From Tubiluchus corallicola (lineage: Eukaryota; Priapulida; Priapulimorpha; Priapulimorphida; Tubiluchidae), in NCBI GenBank assembly GCA_030141605.1, contig JAQGDQ010000034.1, forward strand, positions 918,001 through 982,000: a stretch of 64,000 nt of DNA, given 5' to 3'. Every line of letters starts with the position of its first letter. Position 1 is the first letter of the stretch. This document shows, piece after piece, positions 601 to 51,119 of the stretch. The notes below the pieces were generated by a model. It did not search any database, was not told where the DNA came from, and saw only the letters and a list, made by a program, of their open reading frames with translations. Made by a program: the position numbers and the translations under genes.

Positions 601-13065
<12,465 letters not shown>

Positions 13066-33400: not shown

Positions 33401-36400
33401 TGCACTAAGCAGAAAAATCCGTCAGTACCTCCATGAAACACGAATCATTTTTTGCACCAAGCAGAAAAATCCGTCAGCACCCCAACGAAACACGAATCAT
33501 TTACTGCATCAAGTAGAAAAATCCGTCAGTATCCTCATGAAACACGAATCATTTACTGCACCAAGCAGAAAAATCCGTCAGTACCCCATGAAACACGAAT
33601 CATTTACTGCACCAAGCAGAAAAATCCGTCAGTACCCACACAAAACATGAATCATTTACTACTAAACCAATTTATGTTTCATGGGGTACTGACAGATTTT
33701 TCTCAAACTGAAACAGCATAAAATACTTGATATCAGTTTATTCAAAAAGCACAAAGCCTAAAAAAGATCACTGCATAAATATGTGACTATTACAAAGCTG
33801 CCACAATCATTGATTACCTGCTGAGTAACTTCAGTCTTCACAGACTGCAAGAACTCTGGATTTGACGGATACATGGAGCACGCGAAGATAAAATCGTGCC
33901 ACAGGAAGATCCCCATTTCATCCGTCAAGTCATAGAAATCATCTTGTTCATAAACACCTAAATAAATTAATGAAAATTGAAAACCAAAAGTCGTAACAGT
34001 AATCATATCTAAGCTTGGGGGACAAAAACACTTTTCAGAAAACTTTATAGTTCAAGTTTTGATACACAGGAAATCATATCAAGATATTTATGAATTAAAA
34101 TTTAAGAGGTTATACTGCAACAATTACGCAAATATATAATTACCAATGTGAAGATAATTGCAGAACGTGCGGAGCTGGAGTCCTTTGCTGTTTTAATGTT
34201 CAAGTTTGAAAAGCATTTTAAATCATTTTACTTTGTCTACTCTTAGTCTGGGAAATTTTGGCAGTACGTCACAAAAAATTCAGCCCTGTTAGTTCTTTAG
34301 GGGATCCGATCCCATCAAATGAAGGAATTAGCAACTTCTTTAGAGCATAAAAGCCAAAAGCCATGAAGCAAATAACAGCAGACAATCTCACAATAAAAGA
34401 CCTCAAGCTCTTGAGAAGAATCACAGTCAAACTCAATGTTTTTGGCATTGTGTAAAAGATTTCAGTTGAGAAATGGTCTAAATGAAATGGAATGCATCCT
34501 GACCCCGACAAATTTAGCACTAGACTAATGGCTAGAAAACACACCTCCACCCCAGACACGTAGAATGTTCATGTGAGCGTCTTTGGCTGACTGTAGCAAG
34601 TTTTGCAAAACCGGTCGAGTGACCTTCTCTTGAAAACTGTCGGCAGGAATCCAATTTGAACCCTTCATGAAGACAGCTGCGCCGTTAATCCTGAACCAGA
34701 AATCCAGACCTGAAATAAAATGTTTGAACCAACGAGACGTTTGAATCAGAGAAAACCAAGTTGTAATAGAAAAGCCTGAATCAGCTTTTTCAACTACAGG
34801 CACCAACTCCAAGGATGAGAATGACAAATTGCAAAAAACTTTGAAACAAGCCGGGGGTTTGGGGGCTGCGTAGGCCCCAATGGGGGTTCAAGGGGCCAGC
34901 AACAAATTGCAATTCTGTGACCATAGACAGCCTCTAAGTGGACTTAAAATATCAGTTACCTTGTTTCATGCATAATTTAAAATACCCAACTATCAAGGAT
35001 ACATGATACCTAATTGTCTCAAAAATGCCTAAGTACTGGCCGCTCCTATGCAAAAGTATATAAAAACTGTCTGCAATTGATTCAAGTAACTCCACATAAT
35101 TGATTCTATATTTTTATACATAGAGATATACACGTGGTTACACTGATGTACGTGATGTAAACAAAGTGACGGCCTGCCAATTAGCGGTCAGCTTGTGAAA
35201 TAATGTACTAGGTCCGTAAAAATTTTCACAACAAATTTACGCGATTTACAAAAATGGCACGACTGGTCTTCCAAAAACTCGTAATTCCGCGTATCCGCGG
35301 AAAATTCTCATCCCTGCAACTCACAATATCGAGGTTGGCATGAAAGAGGGGCTTTCCTGCAGAATTCTTCTTGATTAGTTATCACTGTGTCAAGTGCCTC
35401 ACAACCACTGCCAACTTTAGCAAACACAAAGTCCTCGTTTCAAATCAGAGTTAAGAGCTTTTTTGTTGTGTTCCATTCAAACAATATTTTAAACAACACA
35501 AAGAATAGCAGTTTTCTTCAATGTTGTTTGCCCTCAGCTATCATGCCTGCAATTAACCATGTTAATGATTTAGTCTATGTGGTAATTATTTAATTAAAAT
35601 GCCAAACTACAAACATCCTATTTCAGTTCAATATCATAACATAACAATGTAAACTTCTTTATTAATATAGAGAAATTCTCTTTATTTGTAAGTTTAGTTT
35701 TCACGCCATCTTACCTTGCTGGCCTGGTATCTGGTCCTGTATCAGTTCGACTGTACGAAATCCAACTCGAATGATTCGCGAAGAAGCCTCCAATCCAGAA
35801 TCAGGTGAATAAAAAATCTGGACTTTGTACAGCGCCTGCTCTCCTAAACCATTTGGCCACCATAGTTTGACATCCACAGACTACACAAATATCTAATAAT
35901 ATTGTTAAATGTACTTGTAAAGCTGTTCTCAAAAATACAAAACAGAATCTCAAAAACTTTACAGCTATTTTCAAAAGGTCTAAAGATTTACGACTGTTAG
36001 CACTTTTTTTATCTTACAGTGTAGCGTGTATGTTTTAATTGGCATGTTTTAATTAGCAATTCTAAAACGGATCTCCACATAATATATATATATATATATA
36101 TATCCACATAACAAAGTATACAGCTCATCAAAAACACTTTAACCTCTTTTAAATAATTAATTAATTAATTAATTTTAATTAAATAATAAACCCTGCTGCA
36201 ATACTACTGCAAAAAATCATATCGTGTCCATAAATAAAAAACACAAAGCAGCTAACTTTTACATAGGTGCCTAAACAAATTTTAAGAGAATAATTTCCCA
36301 GAAAATCTCAGGGTTATCCGAGGCTTGTAAGCAACTACACCAATATTTAAAAATTTAATTCCGCGAGTGAATTTTGCTGGAATCATCTAACGCGTAAAAC

Positions 36401-39400
36401 ACGCTAAATCAGTTTCAGATTTTTTTCAGAAATGACACATTCAACCCAATTTCCTCTTACATAAACCACCAAGAAAAAGTTAAATTTTCTTTTAGTTTTT
36501 CTGTAAAACTGAAACTTCACCAAGCGCGCCATATTTGACGTTTAAGGACAGAAAAATCAATACACCCATATCTTAGTTTGCCGGACAAAAGGGGGGAGAT
36601 GTCGGTTAAAATTTGTCTGTATTTACCGATACTAAGCTAATACAGCCGGTGTTGTGTACGAGACTCACAGTAATATAGAATCAATCGCCTAATTGTCTCA
36701 AAAGCAGAAACTATCACATTAAGTACAGTTTGTTTGTAAGCAAGGTTTATCAAAGTGACTAACTAGTAATGAGCTCATTGATCAGTAGAGACTGTTTTTC
36801 CATAGTATGCGGTGTTAAAAAATTAATTCCGCTCTACACCATTTAAATAAGGAATTTAAAGGTCAAATTTAACGTAAAAACAAGTTTTTTTCTTAAACTA
36901 AAAAAGTTAATAATAACTTAAAATCTGACATTAATTTTATTAAATTTTACAGCTCCGTTCCTAACGAAATCAGGTCTCGAAGTTTTACCCTCAAAACATT
37001 TTTGTACGGTTTTGCCAGTGAACATTCGGAAAGTCGCAGACTAAACAAATATGCTAGCAATGGCTTCCTTTGATACCATGTCGTTTCTGTGACGCCGAAT
37101 TTGTAAACAATGCTACATAACGAAATGTGACACGCGATAACCAAACGTAAATGTTGCCGCAACTAGAGTGAATTTTGCTGGAATCATCTAACGAGTAAAA
37201 CACGCAAAATCAAGTTTCAGATTTTTTTCAGAAATGACACATTCAACCCAATTTCCTCTTACATAAACCACCAAGAAAAAGTTAAATTTTCTTTTAGTTT
37301 TTCTGTAAAACTGAAATTTCACCAAGCGCGCCATATTTGACCATTAAGGAAAGAAAAACGAATACACCCATATCTCAGTCTGCGGACAAAAGCGGGGAGA
37401 TGTCGGTTAAAATTTGTCTGTATTTACCGATACTAAGCTAATACAGCCGGTGTTGTGTACGAGACTCACAGTAATATAGAATCAATCGCCTAATTGTCTC
37501 AAAAGCAGAAACTATCACATTAAGTACAGTTTGTTTGTAAGCAAGGTTTATCAAAGTGACTAACTAGTAATGAGCTCATTGATCAGTAGAGACTGTTTTT
37601 CCATAGTATGCGGGACTTTTTAACGGTCCAGATTTTATCCGATTCTTCCGATATCTGCAAAAGCACAGTCCGGCAAGCCGAGATACGAGTGTACACCAGG
37701 ATACTCATTAAAACTTACATTTGGTATAGCAACCGTTATATTGCACACATTTTCCCCTGGTGTCAATTTAATCTTCACTGTCTCTATTAACCGAAGACTC
37801 GGCACTTGAACAACTACGGTACCACTTTGCGAGCTTAAATCAGCAGCATCAAGCCATACTGCTGCATCAACGTACCACGATATGTCTCCTGTTCCTGTAC
37901 AAACAGCAAAAATAATAGAAATTCACAAATTCATATGCAGGACAATCCATGCTAGGTGATTATGTTTGCAAAATGAGCTAGTAAACTGTAAGCCTTTTTA
38001 GAAAATTGACATGGCAAGTGTGGAAATCTTTTTTACAAATCTTAATCAGATTTGTAATTTCATACCTTTACGAACAGTAGCAGAAGCATCTCTAATTACT
38101 GCTGTATCAAATGCTTCTATACCAATGGTTTTCCTGCAATCGAGCATATGTCATACATATTTTAAATATGTAATCATATAATTATATCTACATTGCTTGT
38201 ATAATAAATTATAGATAACATCTTACAATAGATTTGGCTAAACTTTAAGACTATAGTGCTTTTGTAGATCGTAAATTTTTAACTTACTACCAGCTTCAAG
38301 GTAAACATATAAAGCTCAATGAATGTGTGTGTTTTTTAGTGTTTAAATACTCTGTAATTAAAACTGAGAAGAATTTCATCTGCACTTACTGCATAAACAG
38401 TGGGCTGACAATTATATCATCTCGAGCTTATGCAAAATTAACACCAATAAGCCTTTTCGCAGTTCTAGCAACTGATGATGATCGTTAAAAGTTCAAAAGT
38501 TAAGTGTACCAGACAATACATTCGTGTACACTTGACAACACCTCGCAGCCCACAATGTTGTAATAATAACAGCTTTAACAGCTGGCTAGAGTCTTATAGC
38601 AAGATCTTGCTAGTAAATCATTCTACACACAGACTAATGCATAACTAAGTAAAGTCCACTAAAACAACTGAAGCACTGAACTAATTATTTGTGTTACAAA
38701 CTACACGTAACGATTGTAGTTAAGATGCGTTGCTGTGGTACACTTAACCTATGACCTACAGCAACTGCATGTGCGCACAAAGAAGCTATGAAAAGGCTTA
38801 TTAACAATCAAATCAAATGTAATTTTCCTCCCTACATGATGTTACTCCATTTTCATTGCTTTATACACACTTATAGCACAAACTTTTAGATGTATAACCA
38901 TTCCATCTCATAAAAGTCTACTGACAATCACAGTATAACATAGATTGCAAAAATCATATTTTTCAACTACTGTACGTTACACAGTTGTCAGAAATGTAGC
39001 TGCTATTTAAACACTAAGAACTTGGCAACAATGTTATCTTTTACCATATTCCCTGGGGTGCAAAAGCAGGTCCCCAGTCCCAGCTGAAAGAACAGGGTTC
39101 TTTGCGAATGAAGTTCACATGGCATTCGCCGTGTTGAGGTGCGGCCGTGCATTCCGGTGGAACAACGTACTCGTATTCCGCTGCTTTTCTGGCAGCATAG
39201 GTGATAGCCGATTCAAACTGTATGGAAATTTTGTTCATGCCGACCTGTAGGCGAGCAATAAAAACAATTATTTGTTATAGTAATTAAAGAAGACACCCAA
39301 CACTGAGTGGCTTAACTCAATGGTAGTGTGCTTGCTTATGACACGAGGTCGTAGGTTCAACTCCTGTCAGAGTCATACCAAAGACTTGAAAAATGGCACC

Positions 39401-42400
39401 ACTTGTTCTTCCACCAAGCACACGGGTTTATCAAAATGACGTGCGGGTAATAATAATCCGGACCATATTGGAAATAAGTATAGTGTTACTTAATGTGTTA
39501 TCCATGGATTAGGTTCTAAACGAAAATATTATTATTAGAACATGGCATAGCAAACTCATCTTGCAACTGCCATATAAGGGTATATCTGATACCTTTTTTG
39601 AGAAAACGATGCTAGTACTTTAGTGGGAAAATGATAAGGGCCCAACTGCTCACAAAACCAGTTACAATTCCTATTGCATCAATTTGTAAAGTTTAAACAC
39701 TTGAGAAAAACAAGTTCATGCTTACCAACAGTGTAAATTTTTTCCCTTTCCTTCCTCAAGGAAAAAGGATGAAATAAAGAGACGAATAGCAAAGAACAAC
39801 AGTAAGAACAAACATGTACTAATTAAATGTTTTAATGCCACTTATGGGCAATAACGTTTATGATAGCATAACTTCATATAAGAACAAAAGTAACCTCATC
39901 AAATTATCTTGAAGTGAATATTATGACATTGTAAAAAGCACAACAAAATGATGATTTATGAACAAAAAAAAAAAAAAAAACGATCACTAAATCTTTAAAA
40001 GGAAAAGAATTTAATAGATTAACCCAGCATCAGCATCATTGACCTTACAGTGCCCCATAGATGTTCTAGTTTTCTTCTTGAATGTCAGTCTTTAACACTT
40101 TTCTATAATTGAAAATTTATGACTACAGACAAGAATCAAGCAAAGAGGGTTCCATGTAGATAATATAGTACATTGCACTTGCCTGCAGAGTCGGTTTGAT
40201 ATCGAAGATATAGCGCACAAACATATTTTCGGTATTCCCAACATGTTTACCATTTATAGAAACAGAAGCTACTGTATCCAATCCTTCACAAACAAGCTGT
40301 ACTTTATCTTTCTTCAAGGTGTCACTGTCAACTAAACCAAAAAAAGAAATCGTATGAAGACCTCTAGCGAAATATCCCCTTGGCAGTAACATATATACAA
40401 CTGTAGCTAGATACAAATCATGTCATGTTTTTCTTGGAACAGTTAATGCAGCTTTTGGTAACATTTCAATGCATTTAGATTCTTTTGTGTAATTCTAATT
40501 TTAACAATAGCAATAATAACAGTAGCAGCAGCAGCAGCAACAACAACAACAGCAACAACAACAACAATAACAACAACAACTGCCTAAGTTATGAGCATGG
40601 AACATTAAAATAAGTGAACAAGAATCTATCATAGAGAGTTTGCACCCATCCCTCATCTGATACTTTATTGTGCTCATAACTGCAATGAATGATAAGATTG
40701 ACCACTTGGAGCTATTGTTGGAATGGGTCCAATAGTTACTTAACAGAGAACTTATTATAACTAATTGCAAGTTTGGCAGCTAAACTTTAGATCAAACGTG
40801 TTGTGGAGATCGATAGCATTCATTAGAATTGAATAGAAAATTGTAGAATGTTCCATAGTATAGTAGAACAATCTTCTTACCCTGTAGAAGTTTCGAGAAC
40901 TTTCTATTTCTAGACTGTTCCTTTGCACTGATATATAAGGCGGAGCTCGCCGCTGGAGTTTATTCCCTTGTATCCTTGTAGTCTCAGATTCTCAGATACG
41001 CTTTCTCGCTTTCACGTTTCCAGATTATCACATTTACTTTAAACATTTCGCGTTCCGTCATACTTTTGTGTTGTAGAATTCTCCCAGAATAAACTAGTTT
41101 AATTTGATGACGTGTTTTTTGGTTTTCTCTATGAGCCGTCCGAGAGAAACAAAACACAACAAAACGGGGCATCTCAATCATCTTCATTAACAATGCAAAG
41201 AGGTCTACAACTAAAATTTTTGCCGAAAAGGCATGCATAGTAAAGTAGCTGGATATCATGGTTTCTGCTTAATCACTGAAATCTGAAAATGAAGTGAAAT
41301 TAACTAAAATCTCACCTTCAAATGTTCTTATATAAGTCCAATTATCTTTAGCAATCCAGCGATAGTCAACATCATTAAATCGGTAGTATGGATCGTTAAT
41401 AACACCAGCATCTCTCAATGCTGTATGTATAGAACCAGGCACCGTACCATTTACTGTAATACCTAATAGAAAAATTGAAATATTTGGAGTGAACTTTTTC
41501 ATGAACTTGTTACTTAATACAAATTTTAATTAAAACTGTAGCATGCTTAGAATGAAGATTACTGCGAAAAAATATATGTGTGCTTGCAAACCAAAACCGT
41601 CCATAAGTCGACATGTTAAAACCACGTCATGATGCTTCAAAGTAGAATGCAGCAAAAATTTAGTCAATTGTCAATTTTTCTTTTATAAAAAATGCTAAAT
41701 ATGTTGAATTTTTATATCCTAGCATCAAATTATCTAAAAAATGTTCAAAAAATACTAAACGTCCAATTTTTTAATCCCATACCCAGTTTTCTGGCCTTTC
41801 CTTTGGATTATCTCAGCTTAGAAAAATAACATAGAGTGATGAACTTGGTGTCAAAATGATCCTCATGAAATGGAGATTCAGAATATGTGAATAACTAGAA
41901 AAACTAAATTGTCGACTTGTTGACGATTTTGCTATGCAAGCACGCATTATCAGCAGAATTAATTTATAGGTGCAGTGTCTTGTAGGCCAAGACGGCATTT
42001 AGACAATAACACACTAGATGCTTTTGTTTCTTCACATTTTGTAATAATTACACTATCATTACTATTTAGTGATAAGCAAAAAATTGTCTATTTTATATTA
42101 CTGTAGAAATAATCATAGTCAACGGTCAACTGAGATACCTTACTAAGCATTGCAGTATAATGCAGGCCTAGTATGTGTGGTAGTCTAGTGGTTGTCAATT
42201 CACCAGCATAGTAAGTTAACACTATCATCTGAATCTGAACGTAGATAGCAGGGCATTTCTTTAGGAATATTAGGGTAGTACGCATGCGTGGCAGTGAGAT
42301 AACATCATCTACCACAGATTAATACACTTCCGTTCAATGTCAGATAAATTTTTTGTATCGCTGCTCTAAACTTCACTATGTCTGAAATTTGCACATGTGA

Positions 42401-44071: not shown

Positions 44072-47000
44072 TTAAGTAGTTGTTATTGTCTGTTCTGGTT
44101 GTTGGCCAAACAAAGAACTAAACAGATCATTTTTACTATCTTCTGTGAAAGAGCAGTTGTCTACAGGTGCCATGAAGTTAACAAGTTTTTTGTGCACGTC
44201 GAATCTGACCCGTCTGCCCTTGCTAGCTTTAGTATCGACCTTCCTCTTCACTTTACTACGCAATTTCTGAATTTCCAGCCACTGTCGGCTTAGTTCAATG
44301 GGGTCGGTTATATCCGCAGTTTTGCGTTCTATGAGTTCTCGTAGTTGCTGATGATAAAAGTCCTCATCGTTAAAAATCTCAGGATCATATGATTTTAAAT
44401 TCTCTTCCTCATCTTTTGTTTGAATTCCATCAATGGAACCATTGCCCAAGGCATCAGAGTTGCTAGACGGTTGTTCCGTTTCGCGTTTTCCAACGACCGA
44501 AAGCGACGTTCTCTGCAGCTGGGTTCTCTTTAGCAATCGATTCTTATCTGCTAGAATCTGTTCTATTTGTTTTAAGATCGACTGGCCAAAGATGCCGGAC
44601 TGCTTGTCTTTTATCCTGGATGAAACCAGTCGAGTTTTGTCGTTCCATTTTTGTATTGCACTGTTCCTGTACGATTGAAAACTCTGATGTCTCTTGGCAA
44701 GAAAATCGGGATATTCGCTCATCGGCAACTTCCGTTTCACAGCACGTCTCTCGACTGCTTTATCTTCAACTTCGTCTTCTTCGCTCGTGATTTCATCATC
44801 ACGAGCAGATTTCTTCGCTACATTTTTGCTATCTTTGCGGCCGGTTACCACATAGTTGGTATCCGCATTTTGGAGCAGCAATTTTGTCTGCAAATGTATC
44901 ATATTGTCCAGCAAGTTTTTCAGTTTTTGCTGTATATTTTGCAGAGACACTGATTGGTCAGATGATAGATGAGATACGTACTTCACCCAGGAATTATATT
45001 GCGGAAACTGATTGATTAACTGTACAAGCTTTTGTAATTTTATGCGTGCTTCTAACAGGCTGTCCCACAAGGAAAGCTGTTTTACGGTAGCTTTTCCCCT
45101 TACTAAGTCGTCATTAATGCTGACACTAGAAAAACTTTTGATAACGCTATCAGAAGAACCGTGTTTTGCAACTGCAGTTCCTGGAGATAATCTATCATCA
45201 TTTTCAACATCACTATCAGAATTGCTGTTGAAATCATCATCACCGTCATCATCACTACCACCGTTATCATCATCGTTGTCATTATCGGTATCAGTTTTAT
45301 CAGCGTCATCATCACTGTCTCTCTCGCTACTAGACAGGTATGCTGTTGCACTATCGACAACATTTCCATGAAGCGAATGCCTGTCTTGATTGCTTACAAT
45401 TTGCAGCATATCTTCACCGATGTCATCATTATCATTTTCGTCATCACTGCTGTCATCAGAATGCTGAAACAACAAAGGAATTAGAATATCGGTGAGAACG
45501 ACATTAAAGTAACGGTATACAATAATGCAAATTTACATTTTATAGATACTGTTTTTGCAACTTCTGTTTTAGTAAACACAAATTAGCATCAAATTAGAAT
45601 GCTGTTTGGATGTTTTCATTTCTCACTGCATAAAAAAACACCAGGCCGGCCACAAAAAAATTTGTTTCCATCTTACCTCATGAGCTCAAAAGATGTCACT
45701 GGGGAGGGAGGACAGAATTTTTTCAAAGCTGAATTGTGGAACATTTAAAATCAGTTGACATCAAAGTTTGTTTATTTCCCACTAGTTAGCAGTAATGTTT
45801 TAATTTTTTTCAATGCGCATTTGTCACACTTTGTTTTTTAGTTTTTTGTTTCACATTACTAAATTATCATATAATTATCAATTATCGTACAGTCTCTTTT
45901 TTGTACAGCATGAATGTATGCTCAGATAAATCTGGTATAAGCTGCAACACTACTAATTATAAAATCTAATATACTAATACTGCAACAATACTAATTACAC
46001 ATTACTCATGCTGATTTGGTGGAAAGAACGCATGCGATTATCAACATCATACAAAGTGGCAACACTGGTCGAGAGTTAGACATGGTGATTGTTGGTCTGC
46101 ATGCTAGACCAATGCTAGAAGAAATTCTAATTTAATCATGAAAAGGCAGCATGCATACTGTCTCAGAGTGCAGAGGAAACTGCAGTTAACAATGAATTTT
46201 TTTGAGCAGTCAGTAAGATGCAACACAAACGTAAGAAAACACAAACCTTAAGATGTTTACGTAAGACTGTTTTCCCTGCATAGCGGCGACTGTGTTCGGA
46301 TAATAGCGGCACATTACGCCTACGGAGAGAGCTTGTACTGGTACCGGCAAGTGTCTGATCATCGCCTTCACTGTCTACATAAATCAACATGTTATGCACA
46401 TTATTATAGTCATTTAAAGGTATAATATAACCTAGCCACATCATAAAACAGATTTGCTTTCAGTACTTGTTTACCTAAACCCAATTTGAAATTGACATGG
46501 CTAATTATGTAATCACAAATTATTTGACTCACAATGATTCATTAGTCACAGGAGATTCGAATTGACTACAATAAAAATAGTTAATATATTGAATTTGTAC
46601 ACATAGTAAAAGTAGTTAACAATGTCCTACAGTGGTAACGTCATTCCAGAGATTGGGACCACTAGACGTACAAGGCTGATTTGAACAATGCAAAGTTTTT
46701 ACACAGGTTAGTACAGTAAAAATCCTTCATTAGATATTAGCCTATAAGATGAATGGCATAAAAAAAGTTCACAGATGGCCTGTGAACATCATTATGTAAT
46801 GCTCGGAACACAAGAGTTAAAATTTTAAAAATAATATGACATCTAACAAGCAACCAGTGCAGACGATACAAGATAGGCGAGATGTGACAAGACAAGTTGC
46901 CATTCACAAGACATACAGCATTATTTCGTATTCGGCATAAACCATGAGATTTGTCTAAGGCAAAGTAGCTTTTTAGCTTTTGTAACTGAAAAATGCATCA

Positions 47001-48235: not shown

Positions 48236-48343
48236 CAAGAAATTAGTTTGTGAAGCAGAGTAGGATTAGGGTTGGAGTTGGGGTTAGGGTCGTGTTGGGG
48301 TTAATAAGGTTTTTATATTGTGTGGGAAATTGTAAACTCCATC
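48236..48343. repeat. Interstitial TTAGGG-like repeat, third copy
   Basis: GCAAGAAATTAGTTTGTGAA leads into GTAGGATTAGGGTTGGAGTT and GGGGTTAGGGTCGTG, then TTATATTGTGTGGGAAATTG and TAAACTCC. The same order of flanking words is found at 26036-26212, so both are copies of one dispersed module. Confidence 0.7.
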
Positions 48344-51119
48344 TAGTAGGTGTAGAATAGCAATGACAATAATAGTTTTTATATTAAAAGCTTCTGGCCA
48401 GTGTGCTTCTTGAGCTGCTGTTTCAGTTAGAATAGAAGTGTAACGGAAATGTGAAATCATTATTGTTACGATATTAACTCCTGCAGATCAAAGGCTGCTA
48501 CAACTAGTCCTAAGTTACTTCAAGAACCATACTTGCAAATTACAATCTTTTGTTAAGTTACAGTGGATCCGCTCCACATCAAAGTTTGTCGGCAAAATGG
48601 TTACGCAGATGCTTCAATCAACACAAATGAGCGGTTAATCACGAAGGAAATTTTTTTTCACAAATTTACTGAATCAACTAGTCAAGTGGCTAAATCCCCT
48701 AGTAAAATGTAAGTGGTTAATTTAAATTAGTTTTTAACTAGGTAATTTAGATCGACTTACCAAGAATCCTATGATGACTGAAATATAGTTTATTTCACTT
48801 TTTTGAAGAAGTTTAGATTTTTGCTAACTGTGTGGTTTAACATGCCTACATTGACAATAAGGAAAATCTTACCTGTTGGCTCATCGACGGGTTAATGTGA
48901 TTTCTTTTTTATCAAGGACTGCGATGTTATTAATGGAGAAATGGGAAATTAAAAATTTCAGTCCTCACAAACTGAGTATCGAAAATTTGAGTGTCTACGG
49001 GGCTTCTATAAGTGTACTCGCTTAACCCTTATTACAACAGTATAACAGTAAAAGTTTATTTTAGTTTTGATGATTGTACAACTGTGTAATCTTATAAAAT
49101 GAGGGGGAAGGGGTCAATCCAAAGGCACATCTTGTAGATCTGGACCTTGTCGTCTGAACTATGGATTTTTTTCGTCTGGTCAAGGAATTTTGTCTGCTCT
49201 GCAGTAGGCATACACTGTGATTTCTATAGCCCCCTTGAGTCCATCTCAACAGAGACAACAACTGCTGTACGAAGTGCAACTGTTACATCATAGTGGGACT
49301 CATAAGAAGCAAAGGTGAAAATTCATAATTTAGTGTTTGTAGTGCTTAGATTGCAATTTTATTGCGTTTGTATCTGTAACATGAAAAATGTTTTGTCATA
49401 ATTATTTTAATTTACTATGGACTTAAGGAATATGTCAGACAGTACTTTCTAACCTGTCACACTGTATTTAGAAGCCAAAATTTCAAACTGATATTGAAGG
49501 AAAATTAACGAATTACAGCTTTTTAACATTTTGCTGCCTTAATTAATTGGAAAGCAAATGTATCAGTGTTTTGAAGCCAAGCAAAGAATTGGCAAACACC
49601 ATTGGATGAATGCGCAATACTGAAAAACATTATTAATAAGGGCAATTAGAGCTTTGGAAATAAATGGTAATCCTTTGTTTAGATGGAAGCTGGATGAACA
49701 AGACAGAATTTGTGGATGTGGCTTAGAGCCTGAAACTTTGAAACATAATGTATAATCCTGCATTTTTTATGAAAATGAGACAGGTACGGTTGTTTGGGAT
49801 ATTTCAGATGAGGAGTGTGTGACTTGGTTATTGTTTCAAAATGTTAAGGCAGCAAGTTTCTTAACGATGTAATGAAGAGACGTCAGGAGATTAGAATTAA
49901 GAGACTGGTTTGAAATTATTTTTTTTCAGTCGAATAGCAGTTTTTTACTGCTCACCTTGATACAAAAAGGCCTATAGGCACTGGACTGAATTGAACATAG
50001 GAGTGTCTAGTTTTTTGCTAGATTACTGCTGTGTTTTCCGCTCTTGAGGGTAGATTTCTTTTATTTTGGAATTTTGCCCATAAAGATAATTATGACTCTG
50101 CTTGACCAATGTCTATAACAGACGTGATGACTGATTGAAAGAATCGACCAAAGATTATCTATAGAAATGCCTGTCCGATGTTGGGATATCAGAAGCCAAT
50201 TTTACACTGTAAATTTCACACATAAATTTTAAAATCCTCCTTCTCCACTTTCGTTTTTGCTTGCATATTACGTTTTTCTGGCTACACAAATAATTATATT
50301 CATTTTATTATATTATTTTGTTCATTGTTTTACAGTTATAATTAAGTTTTCTATTTTTCATTGAGTCATAATTATCTATTTAGTTGCACACTCATATTCT
50401 ATTGTATATATTTTGTTTCATTTCCGCTTCAATATTTGAAGAATTTCTGCTTCTCTATAATAGTTCTTTTGTTTCAAAGTCCTCCTGGCATTATGCTTAA
50501 TAGGCATAATTTCATTGAATAAAATTGCGTATTTCCGTTTCAGTTTTTAGTTTCATTTTATCATGCACATTTTGTTTCCTTTACTGATTTTTTATTTGCC
50601 CTTTATTTTCTTCTTTCGGTTTGGCTTAATCTTATAGTTTGTTTATGCTTTAGTCGGTTAGTTATATGCTTTACATATTTCATTGATCATCATTGCATAA
50701 TATAATTATTTCATTTTATCATGATGGTTCCTTGTTGCACAGTCTATTTAGTTACTTCGTTTTCATGTTTTATTTCTTCCCCTATAGATTAATGTTAATA
50801 GTTGATGTTCTTATCCTGCTTCATAATTTTATTATAGGGTATAATTAGTAGCGCTACAATTTTTTTAACAACTTACACTAACATGAGAAGGGTAGCTGAG
50901 TTGACGAGCAATTGGCTTCCCGTTACCCTTTCTGCTGCACCTACCCAACTTTTTCCTTTATGCATAATTTATTCTGATTAATCAACATTTATAGCAATTA
51001 TAGTCTATTTTGTATTTTGGTGTGAATGAGGAGAAAACTAAAAAATGTGGATTTCTATGTCTATGTCTAGAAGATTTCCCACGTTGATAGTAAAATTTTA
51101 GCCGAAAAGGCGAAAAGCA
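48344..51119. other. AATF/B4GALT intergenic region, no gene seen
   Basis: AT- and T-rich DNA (especially 50230-50900) with one LINE relic at 49630. No ORF has family motifs. It separates two head-to-head genes and must contain at least part of both promoters. Confidence 0.5.
49630..49800 (+). mobile_element. LINE C-terminal zinc-knuckle fragment
   Basis: The plus-strand frame IRALEINGNPLFRWKLDEQD then RICGCGLEPETLKHNV, stop, SCIFYENE matches the Cys-x-Cys..Glu-Thr..His..Cys block at the end of some LINE proteins. A single in-frame stop and missing flanks mark it as a relic. Confidence 0.6.

What the first reader, a model, noticed from the sequence alone, without database searches (positions are those of the whole stretch)
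40842..41161. Heat-shock-element LTR-like promoter in a beta-mannosidase intron
A perfect four-unit heat-shock element (40887-40904), a second GAAnnTTC near the left end, a TATATAAGG box about 28 bp downstream and an AATAAA are arranged like an LTR, antisense to MANBA. Twelve fixed bases at 5-bp steps are unlikely by chance in 64 kb. It suggests a stress-inducible retroelement promoter that could drive an antisense transcript into MANBA exons.
Basis: partly seen in the sequence, partly recalled or inferred. Interest (0 to 1): 0.6.

Follow-up and report, generated by a model that had tools for sequence, protein, structure and literature searches.

The report
Solo retrotransposon LTR with heat-shock promoter
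The stretch is a leftover end (solo LTR) of a Ty3/Gypsy retrotransposon whose promoter is built from heat-shock-factor binding sites; more than half of this animal genome's perfect four-part sites of this kind lie in copies of this LTR, so heat stress probably wakes the element, although nobody has yet measured it.

Summary
The element is a solo LTR at 40799-41161 (363 bp, TGTTGTGG...CACAACA) with a perfect 5-bp target-site duplication AAACG on both sides, in a 984-bp intron of a beta-mannosidase gene on the minus strand. It belongs to a dispersed Ty3/Gypsy lineage: related loci show a primer-binding site, a polypurine tract and RT-RNase H-integrase. The heat-shock element (HSE) is a family feature, not an accident. 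Of 29 copies picked by their 3' end only, 22 have an HSE of at least 3 perfect units in U3; dinucleotide shuffles average 0.07, and all 31 other triplet pairs give 0. Genome-wide, GAAnnTTCnnGAAnnTTC occurs 306 times against 41 for the reversed control; 175 of these have TATAAGG 5-60 nt downstream (control 0), and the listed ones are nearly all variants of this LTR. Subfamilies keep a perfect HSE in either a distal or a proximal block, which suggests turnover under selection for HSF binding. The host encodes HSF. Best reading: an ONSEN-like heat-shock-driven LTR promoter in an animal Ty3/Gypsy element. Antisense control of MANBA is untested, and the LTR's own poly(A) signal weakens it. New member of a known kind.

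The parts
40794..40798 (+). left target-site duplication AAACG
   Evidence: identical to 41162-41166
40799..41161 (+). solo LTR (363 bp), TGTTGTGG...ACACAACA, 7-bp terminal inverted repeat
   Evidence: about 40 copies; borders coincide with the ends of other copies
40846..40853 (+). upstream two-unit HSE GAATGTTC
   Evidence: sequence; also present in other copies
40887..40904 (+). distal four-unit perfect HSE GAAGTTTCGAGAACTTTC
40908..40920 (+). proximal three-unit HSE block with a degenerate middle unit (TTCTAGACTGTTC); the same position holds a perfect HSE in other subfamilies
   Evidence: sequence
40932..40940 (+). TATA box TATATAAGG; transcription start inferred about 40960-40965 (U3/R border)
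   Evidence: sequence; conserved in copies
41088..41093 (+). AATAAA poly(A) signal, followed by a GT-rich tract about 41107-41128 (R/U5 border inferred)
   Evidence: sequence; AATAAA present in most copies
41162..41166 (+). right target-site duplication AAACG
41316..41463 (-). beta-mannosidase exon upstream (in gene direction) of the intron that holds the LTR; low-coordinate border from the GT donor, high-coordinate border approximate
40165..40331 (-). beta-mannosidase exon downstream (in gene direction) of the intron; high-coordinate border from the AG acceptor, low-coordinate border approximate

Best explanation
A solo LTR of a Ty3/Gypsy retrotransposon whose U3 is a heat-shock promoter. In the parent element, host HSF trimers would bind the HSE blocks upstream of the TATA box during proteotoxic stress and start transcription at the U3/R border; the RNA would end at the AATAAA in R, be primed at the PBS by a tRNA-Ser-like tRNA, and be reverse transcribed and integrated with 5-bp duplications. 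At this site a full element inserted into a beta-mannosidase intron and LTR-LTR recombination later removed the internal part, leaving the promoter. Shown here: the LTR identity, the duplication, the family, the Ty3/Gypsy gene order, the HSE enrichment, and HSF genes in the host. Inferred: HSF binding, heat induction, the transcription start, and formation by recombination.
For: Borders and TSD. Copies: about 40 at 88-92% (lower bound); exact 3' end GAAACAAAACACAACA counted 289 forward and 289 reverse against 3 and 2 in the reversed control. TSDs: 19 of 47 copies perfect, permutation mean 0.67. PBS TGGCGCAGTCGACAGGAT 5 nt after the LTR in 10 of 30 loci; polypurine tract TTCGGGGGGAGG before a 3' LTR. 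RT, RNase H, integrase zinc-binding and rve domains in that order. HSE: 22/29 copies with at least 3 units, shuffles 0.07, other triplets 0/29. Genome count 306 against 41 control for the GAA-first tetramer, only 91 against 47 for the TTC-first phase. 138 + 37 tetramers have TATAAGG at 5-34 and 35-60 nt, control 0. Subfamilies carry the perfect HSE in the distal block, the proximal block or both. HSF DNA-binding domain in three host loci.
Against: No expression, HSF-binding or transcription-start data. Within the window's own subfamily the HSE core bases are not clearly more conserved than spacer bases or the rest (2.8% against 4.0% and 4.3% departures), as expected for dead copies, so conservation among these copies alone proves nothing. 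This copy is old (13 private changes, terminal branch about 5%) and may be silenced. No pair of complete LTRs flanking an intact element was found.
Confidence: 0.83

Rival explanations
1. The LTR identity is right but the HSEs are inherited baggage: ancestral elements were heat-responsive, present copies are inert and silenced, and nothing happens at this locus. (This is compatible with the best explanation for the family and differs only about the present state of this copy.)
For: 13 private changes and about 5% terminal branch; many related loci are truncated or rearranged; about 5 of 20 close copies have lost the four-unit HSE.
Against: HSE, TATA and AATAAA are all intact in this copy; the two C2279/C1292 loci are 99.5% alike over the compared 1.5 kb, so some copies may be recent (or duplicated).
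Confidence: 0.5
2. The LTR has been taken over as a heat-responsive regulator of the beta-mannosidase gene, by antisense transcription or as an intronic enhancer.
For: Intronic, antisense, intact HSE and TATA; Helitron HSEs confer heat response on nearby genes in C. elegans (PMC6927752).
Against: Own poly(A) signal about 130 nt after the start; many copies are scattered with no sign that this one is special; no sign of selection on this copy.
Confidence: 0.06
3. Chance arrangement of HSE-like, TATA-like and AATAAA-like words in intronic DNA.
For: Such words are short; expected tetramers per window about 0.015, not impossible.
Against: About 40 close copies with the same borders, TSD, shared HSE across subfamilies.
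Confidence: 0.005

Closest known systems
ONSEN / ATCOPIA78 of Arabidopsis (PMC3907296, PMC5059998)
   Same: LTR promoter with clustered nGAAn heat-responsive elements used by host heat-shock factors; HSEs recur in related families
   Different: ONSEN is Ty1/Copia and plant, with measured heat activation; this is Ty3/Gypsy in an animal, sequence evidence only
Helitrons with HSEs in Caenorhabditis (PMC6927752)
   Same: A transposon family holds a large share of the genome's HSEs (46% in C. elegans there, at least 57% of one class of perfect tetramers here; different HSE definitions)
   Different: Helitrons are rolling-circle DNA transposons; HSF-1 binding and gene induction were measured there, not here
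TCN3 / TCN12 LTR retrotransposons of Cryptococcus (PMC12810828)
   Same: TCN3 is Ty3/Gypsy with 5-bp TSDs, putative HSEs in the LTR and insertions recovered at 37 C but not at 30 C
   Different: Fungal; two putative HSEs, against perfect 3-4-unit HSEs in many subfamilies here
Drosophila copia (Strand and McDonald 1985, as cited in PMC3907296) and gypsy (PMC10745035)
   Same: Animal LTR elements with heat-shock consensus words
   Different: PMC3907296 states copia lacks the further nGAAn units needed for high-affinity HSF binding; here 3-4 perfect units are present

Membership tests
LTR retrotransposon (solo LTR) | TG...CA ends with terminal inverted repeat and target-site duplication | tested here: met
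   TGTTGTGG...ACACAACA, AAACG on both sides; 19/47 copies perfect TSD, permutation mean 0.67
LTR retrotransposon (solo LTR) | related elements with PBS after the 5' LTR and PPT before the 3' LTR | tested here: met
Ty3/Gypsy (Metaviridae) | pol order RT-RNase H-integrase | tested here: met
   L078: RVT_1, RT_RNaseH, Integrase_H2C2, rve in this order; L055 RVT_1 then RT_RNaseH. The window copy itself has no internal part.
Ty3/Gypsy (Metaviridae) | aspartic protease and complete gag-pol in one copy | tested here: inconclusive
   no protease family match in the ORFs scanned; the loci examined are damaged and were not mended
Endogenous retrovirus with env | env gene between integrase and PPT | tested here: inconclusive
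   only about 170 nt lie between the last ORF that was scanned (5445-5765, no Pfam match) and the 3' LTR at 5937 in L078; no env seen, one locus only
Heat-shock-responsive retrotransposon (ONSEN-like) | HSE of at least 3 nGAAn units upstream of the start in the LTR, shared by copies | tested here: met
   22/29 copies; 175 HSE-TATA pairs, control 0
Heat-shock-responsive retrotransposon (ONSEN-like) | transcript rises after heat shock through HSF | not testable with these tools
   needs RNA and ChIP

The most novel reading that the evidence does not exclude
In this animal genome a single Ty3/Gypsy LTR lineage has become the main carrier of strong HSEs. Its U3 keeps re-forming perfect HSEs in two blocks as subfamilies diverge, so each heat wave could both mobilise the element and scatter ready-made heat-shock promoters, some driving host genes or antisense RNAs.
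Probability: 0.25. Interest if true: 0.72.

Novelty: new member of a known kind. Interest (0 to 1): 0.52.

Why it matters
To my knowledge the best-measured HSF-driven LTR retrotransposons are in plants, and the known large animal case is a DNA transposon (Helitrons in Caenorhabditis). Here one animal Ty3/Gypsy lineage holds at least 57% of the genome's perfect GAA-first tetrameric HSEs, mostly next to a TATA box. If heat-inducible, it would give a direct test of whether warming mobilises retrotransposons and rewires the heat-shock response in an animal.

Tried and rejected
Chance origin: rejected by copies, TSD and controls. LTR copies at C1862/C2163/C2091 were first taken for the 5' LTR of an intact element; they are three identical stretches over 9.2 kb with no second LTR found and no long pol-like open frame, so duplicated assembly or duplication. 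Stronger conservation of HSE core bases within the close subfamily: small difference only, not a case for selection. Structured RNA near the site: no Rfam match; the presumed R region is less structured than shuffles. Primer tRNA gene: the exact 24-nt 3' part CAGGTTCGAATCCTGTCGACTGCG is found only in the three fused loci, not as a separate tRNA gene in the assembly, so tRNA-Ser is my reading from general knowledge of tRNAs, unconfirmed. Host species: not identified. Papers on HSE-bearing LTRs in marine invertebrates or corals: none found in the library.

Full report
What is there. The four-unit HSE lies at 40887-40904, TATATAAGG at 40932-40940 and AATAAA at 41088-41093. The HSE is the only perfect tetramer of either phase in the window, where base composition predicts about 0.015. 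Alignment with other copies moves the left border from 40842 to 40799: the repeat is TGTTGTGG...ACACAACA, 363 bp, with AAACG at 40794-40798 and 41162-41166. A terminal TG...CA pair with a 5-bp direct repeat immediately outside it, and no internal region, is a solo LTR.

Where it sits. Exons on either side, on the minus strand, match beta-mannosidases and GH2 domains. From the splice signals the intron is 40332-41315. The LTR is on the plus strand, hence antisense to the gene.

Family. The same genome (343.5 Mb, 2344 contigs, species not named to me) holds about 40 copies at 88-92% identity, a lower bound because only the best 40 candidates were scored. The exact 16-base 3' end is counted 289 times forward and 289 reverse, with 3 and 2 in the reversed control. 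Over 47 copies with both borders, 19 have perfect 5-bp duplications against 0.67 expected by permutation. Ten of 30 loci picked by the pattern 3'end-N-TGG continue into nearly the same sequence, AATWTTGGCGCAGTCGACAGGATCC, a primer-binding site. Two loci show TTCGGGGGGAGG before a 3' LTR, a polypurine tract. Related loci encode reverse transcriptase, RNase H, an integrase zinc-binding domain and integrase core in the Ty3/Gypsy order.

The HSE is a family trait. To avoid bias I took 29 unique copies chosen only by their 3' end. 22 carry an HSE of three or more perfect units between LTR start and TATA, 7 of them four units. Dinucleotide shuffles give on average 0.07 copies with three units (maximum 1 in 200 rounds). 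Each of the 31 other triplet/reverse-complement pairs in the same 5-bp phase gives none. The copies are related, so these are not 29 independent events; the contrast with the control triplets is what carries the argument. The U3 sequences fall into several subfamilies, some only about 70-75% alike or not alignable in the middle of U3 by blastn. Relative to TATA there are two HSE blocks, distal (mostly starting near -44 to -47, farther out in some subfamilies) and proximal (about -25 to -30). In the window's subfamily the distal block is a perfect tetramer and the proximal one is degenerate; in the L030/L036 type the distal block has three units and the proximal four; in L039 and L058 only the proximal one is perfect (of 41 copies with TATAAGG, 20 have at least three units in the distal block only, 2 in the proximal only, 8 in both, 11 in neither). 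That pattern, change of sequence with retention of a strong HSE before the TATA box, is what selection on the element for HSF binding would produce. This last step is inference.

Weight in the genome. GAAnnTTCnnGAAnnTTC occurs 306 times; the reversed, uncomplemented control 41 times. The other phase, TTC first, has 91 against 47. So the excess is almost wholly in the phase the LTR uses. 138 tetramers have TATAAGG 5-34 nt downstream and 37 have it 35-60 nt downstream, with no control hit: about 175 of 306, 57%. Nearly all matched strings listed are visibly this LTR (...GCACTGATATATAAGG or ...GGCACGCTATATAAGG). Of the 50 tetramers I transcribed from the list, 34 have the TATA box or an exact LTR 3' end within 400 nt. 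The host has three loci with an HSF DNA-binding domain.

Likely working. HSF trimers bind the HSE blocks; TATA about 28 nt after the tetramer sets a start near 40960-40965; AATAAA with a GT-rich tract ends the RNA about 130-150 nt later, as needed for an R region. In a complete element the 3' LTR does the latter. In this solo copy it means that any RNA started here would often end inside the LTR, and the LTR ends 154 nt short of the MANBA exon. The antisense idea is therefore possible by read-through only and is not supported by anything measured.

Age and state. The window copy has 13 private changes among the 21 copies compared and a terminal branch of about 5%. None falls in the HSE, TATA or AATAAA, but with 27 such bases in 363 this is unsurprising. 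Within this subfamily HSE core bases depart from the commonest base in 2.8% of cells, spacers 4.0%, the rest of U3 4.3%: no case for selection on individual dead copies.

Compared with what is known. ONSEN in Arabidopsis is the closest in mechanism (PMC3907296), and heat-responsive elements evolved repeatedly in Brassicaceae COPIA (PMC5059998, title and abstract). Cryptococcus TCN3 is Ty3/Gypsy with putative HSEs in its LTR; insertions were recovered at 37 C and not at 30 C (PMC12810828). In C. elegans 46% of HSEs lie in Helitrons (PMC6927752). Drosophila copia responds to heat but, per PMC3907296, lacks enough nGAAn units; HSF sites were also predicted in copia and gypsy LTRs (PMC10745035). 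The present element works like ONSEN by sequence but belongs to Ty3/Gypsy; I found no paper on this lineage, though the library lacks most subscription journals. Hence a new member of a known kind, with an unusually large share of the genome's strong HSEs.

Noticed in passing
L020 1808-1870 (= C1862:8797 onward; identical in C2163 and C2091): An LTR copy runs directly into AATTTTGGCGCAGTCGACAGGATTCGAACCTGTGCGGGAAAATCCC..., the complement of a tRNA-Ser-like 3' half including CCA, well past the usual 18-nt primer-binding site, as if strong-stop DNA had copied the primer tRNA beyond position 58. No separate tRNA gene with this exact 3' part was found.
   Followed up: partly
G000 C259:41590-42256 (+) and 48306-48972 (-): The LTR 3' end motif recurs every 93 bp in two oppositely oriented arrays: a satellite apparently born from the LTR end.
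   Followed up: no
G000 C159:72578-72718: Three extra copies of the first 44-48 bp of the queried LTR stretch stand in tandem just upstream of an LTR: duplicated U3 segment that includes the upstream two-unit HSE.
   Followed up: no
L078 1571-1640, L079: In a pair of near-identical copies the 5' LTR keeps only about its first 60-90 bases, then jumps into the region after the primer-binding site: most of the 5' LTR and the PBS are deleted.
   Followed up: partly
window 36365-36812 and 37166-37613: Tandem duplication with 801-bp spacing, 231 bp of it 100% identical, probably recent.
   Followed up: no
window 41576-41618 and 41905-41947: 43-nt inverted repeat, 81% complementary, 286 nt apart: possibly a small TIR element in the next intron.
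   Followed up: no
window 44072-45532 (-): 486-aa open frame with AATF-Che1 and TRAUB domains, next to the beta-mannosidase gene.
   Followed up: partly
G000 C628:390876-391992: TTC-first tetrameric HSE TTCTGGAATATTCAGGAA repeated eight times, spaced mostly about 170 or 85 bp: a satellite with HSEs.
   Followed up: no
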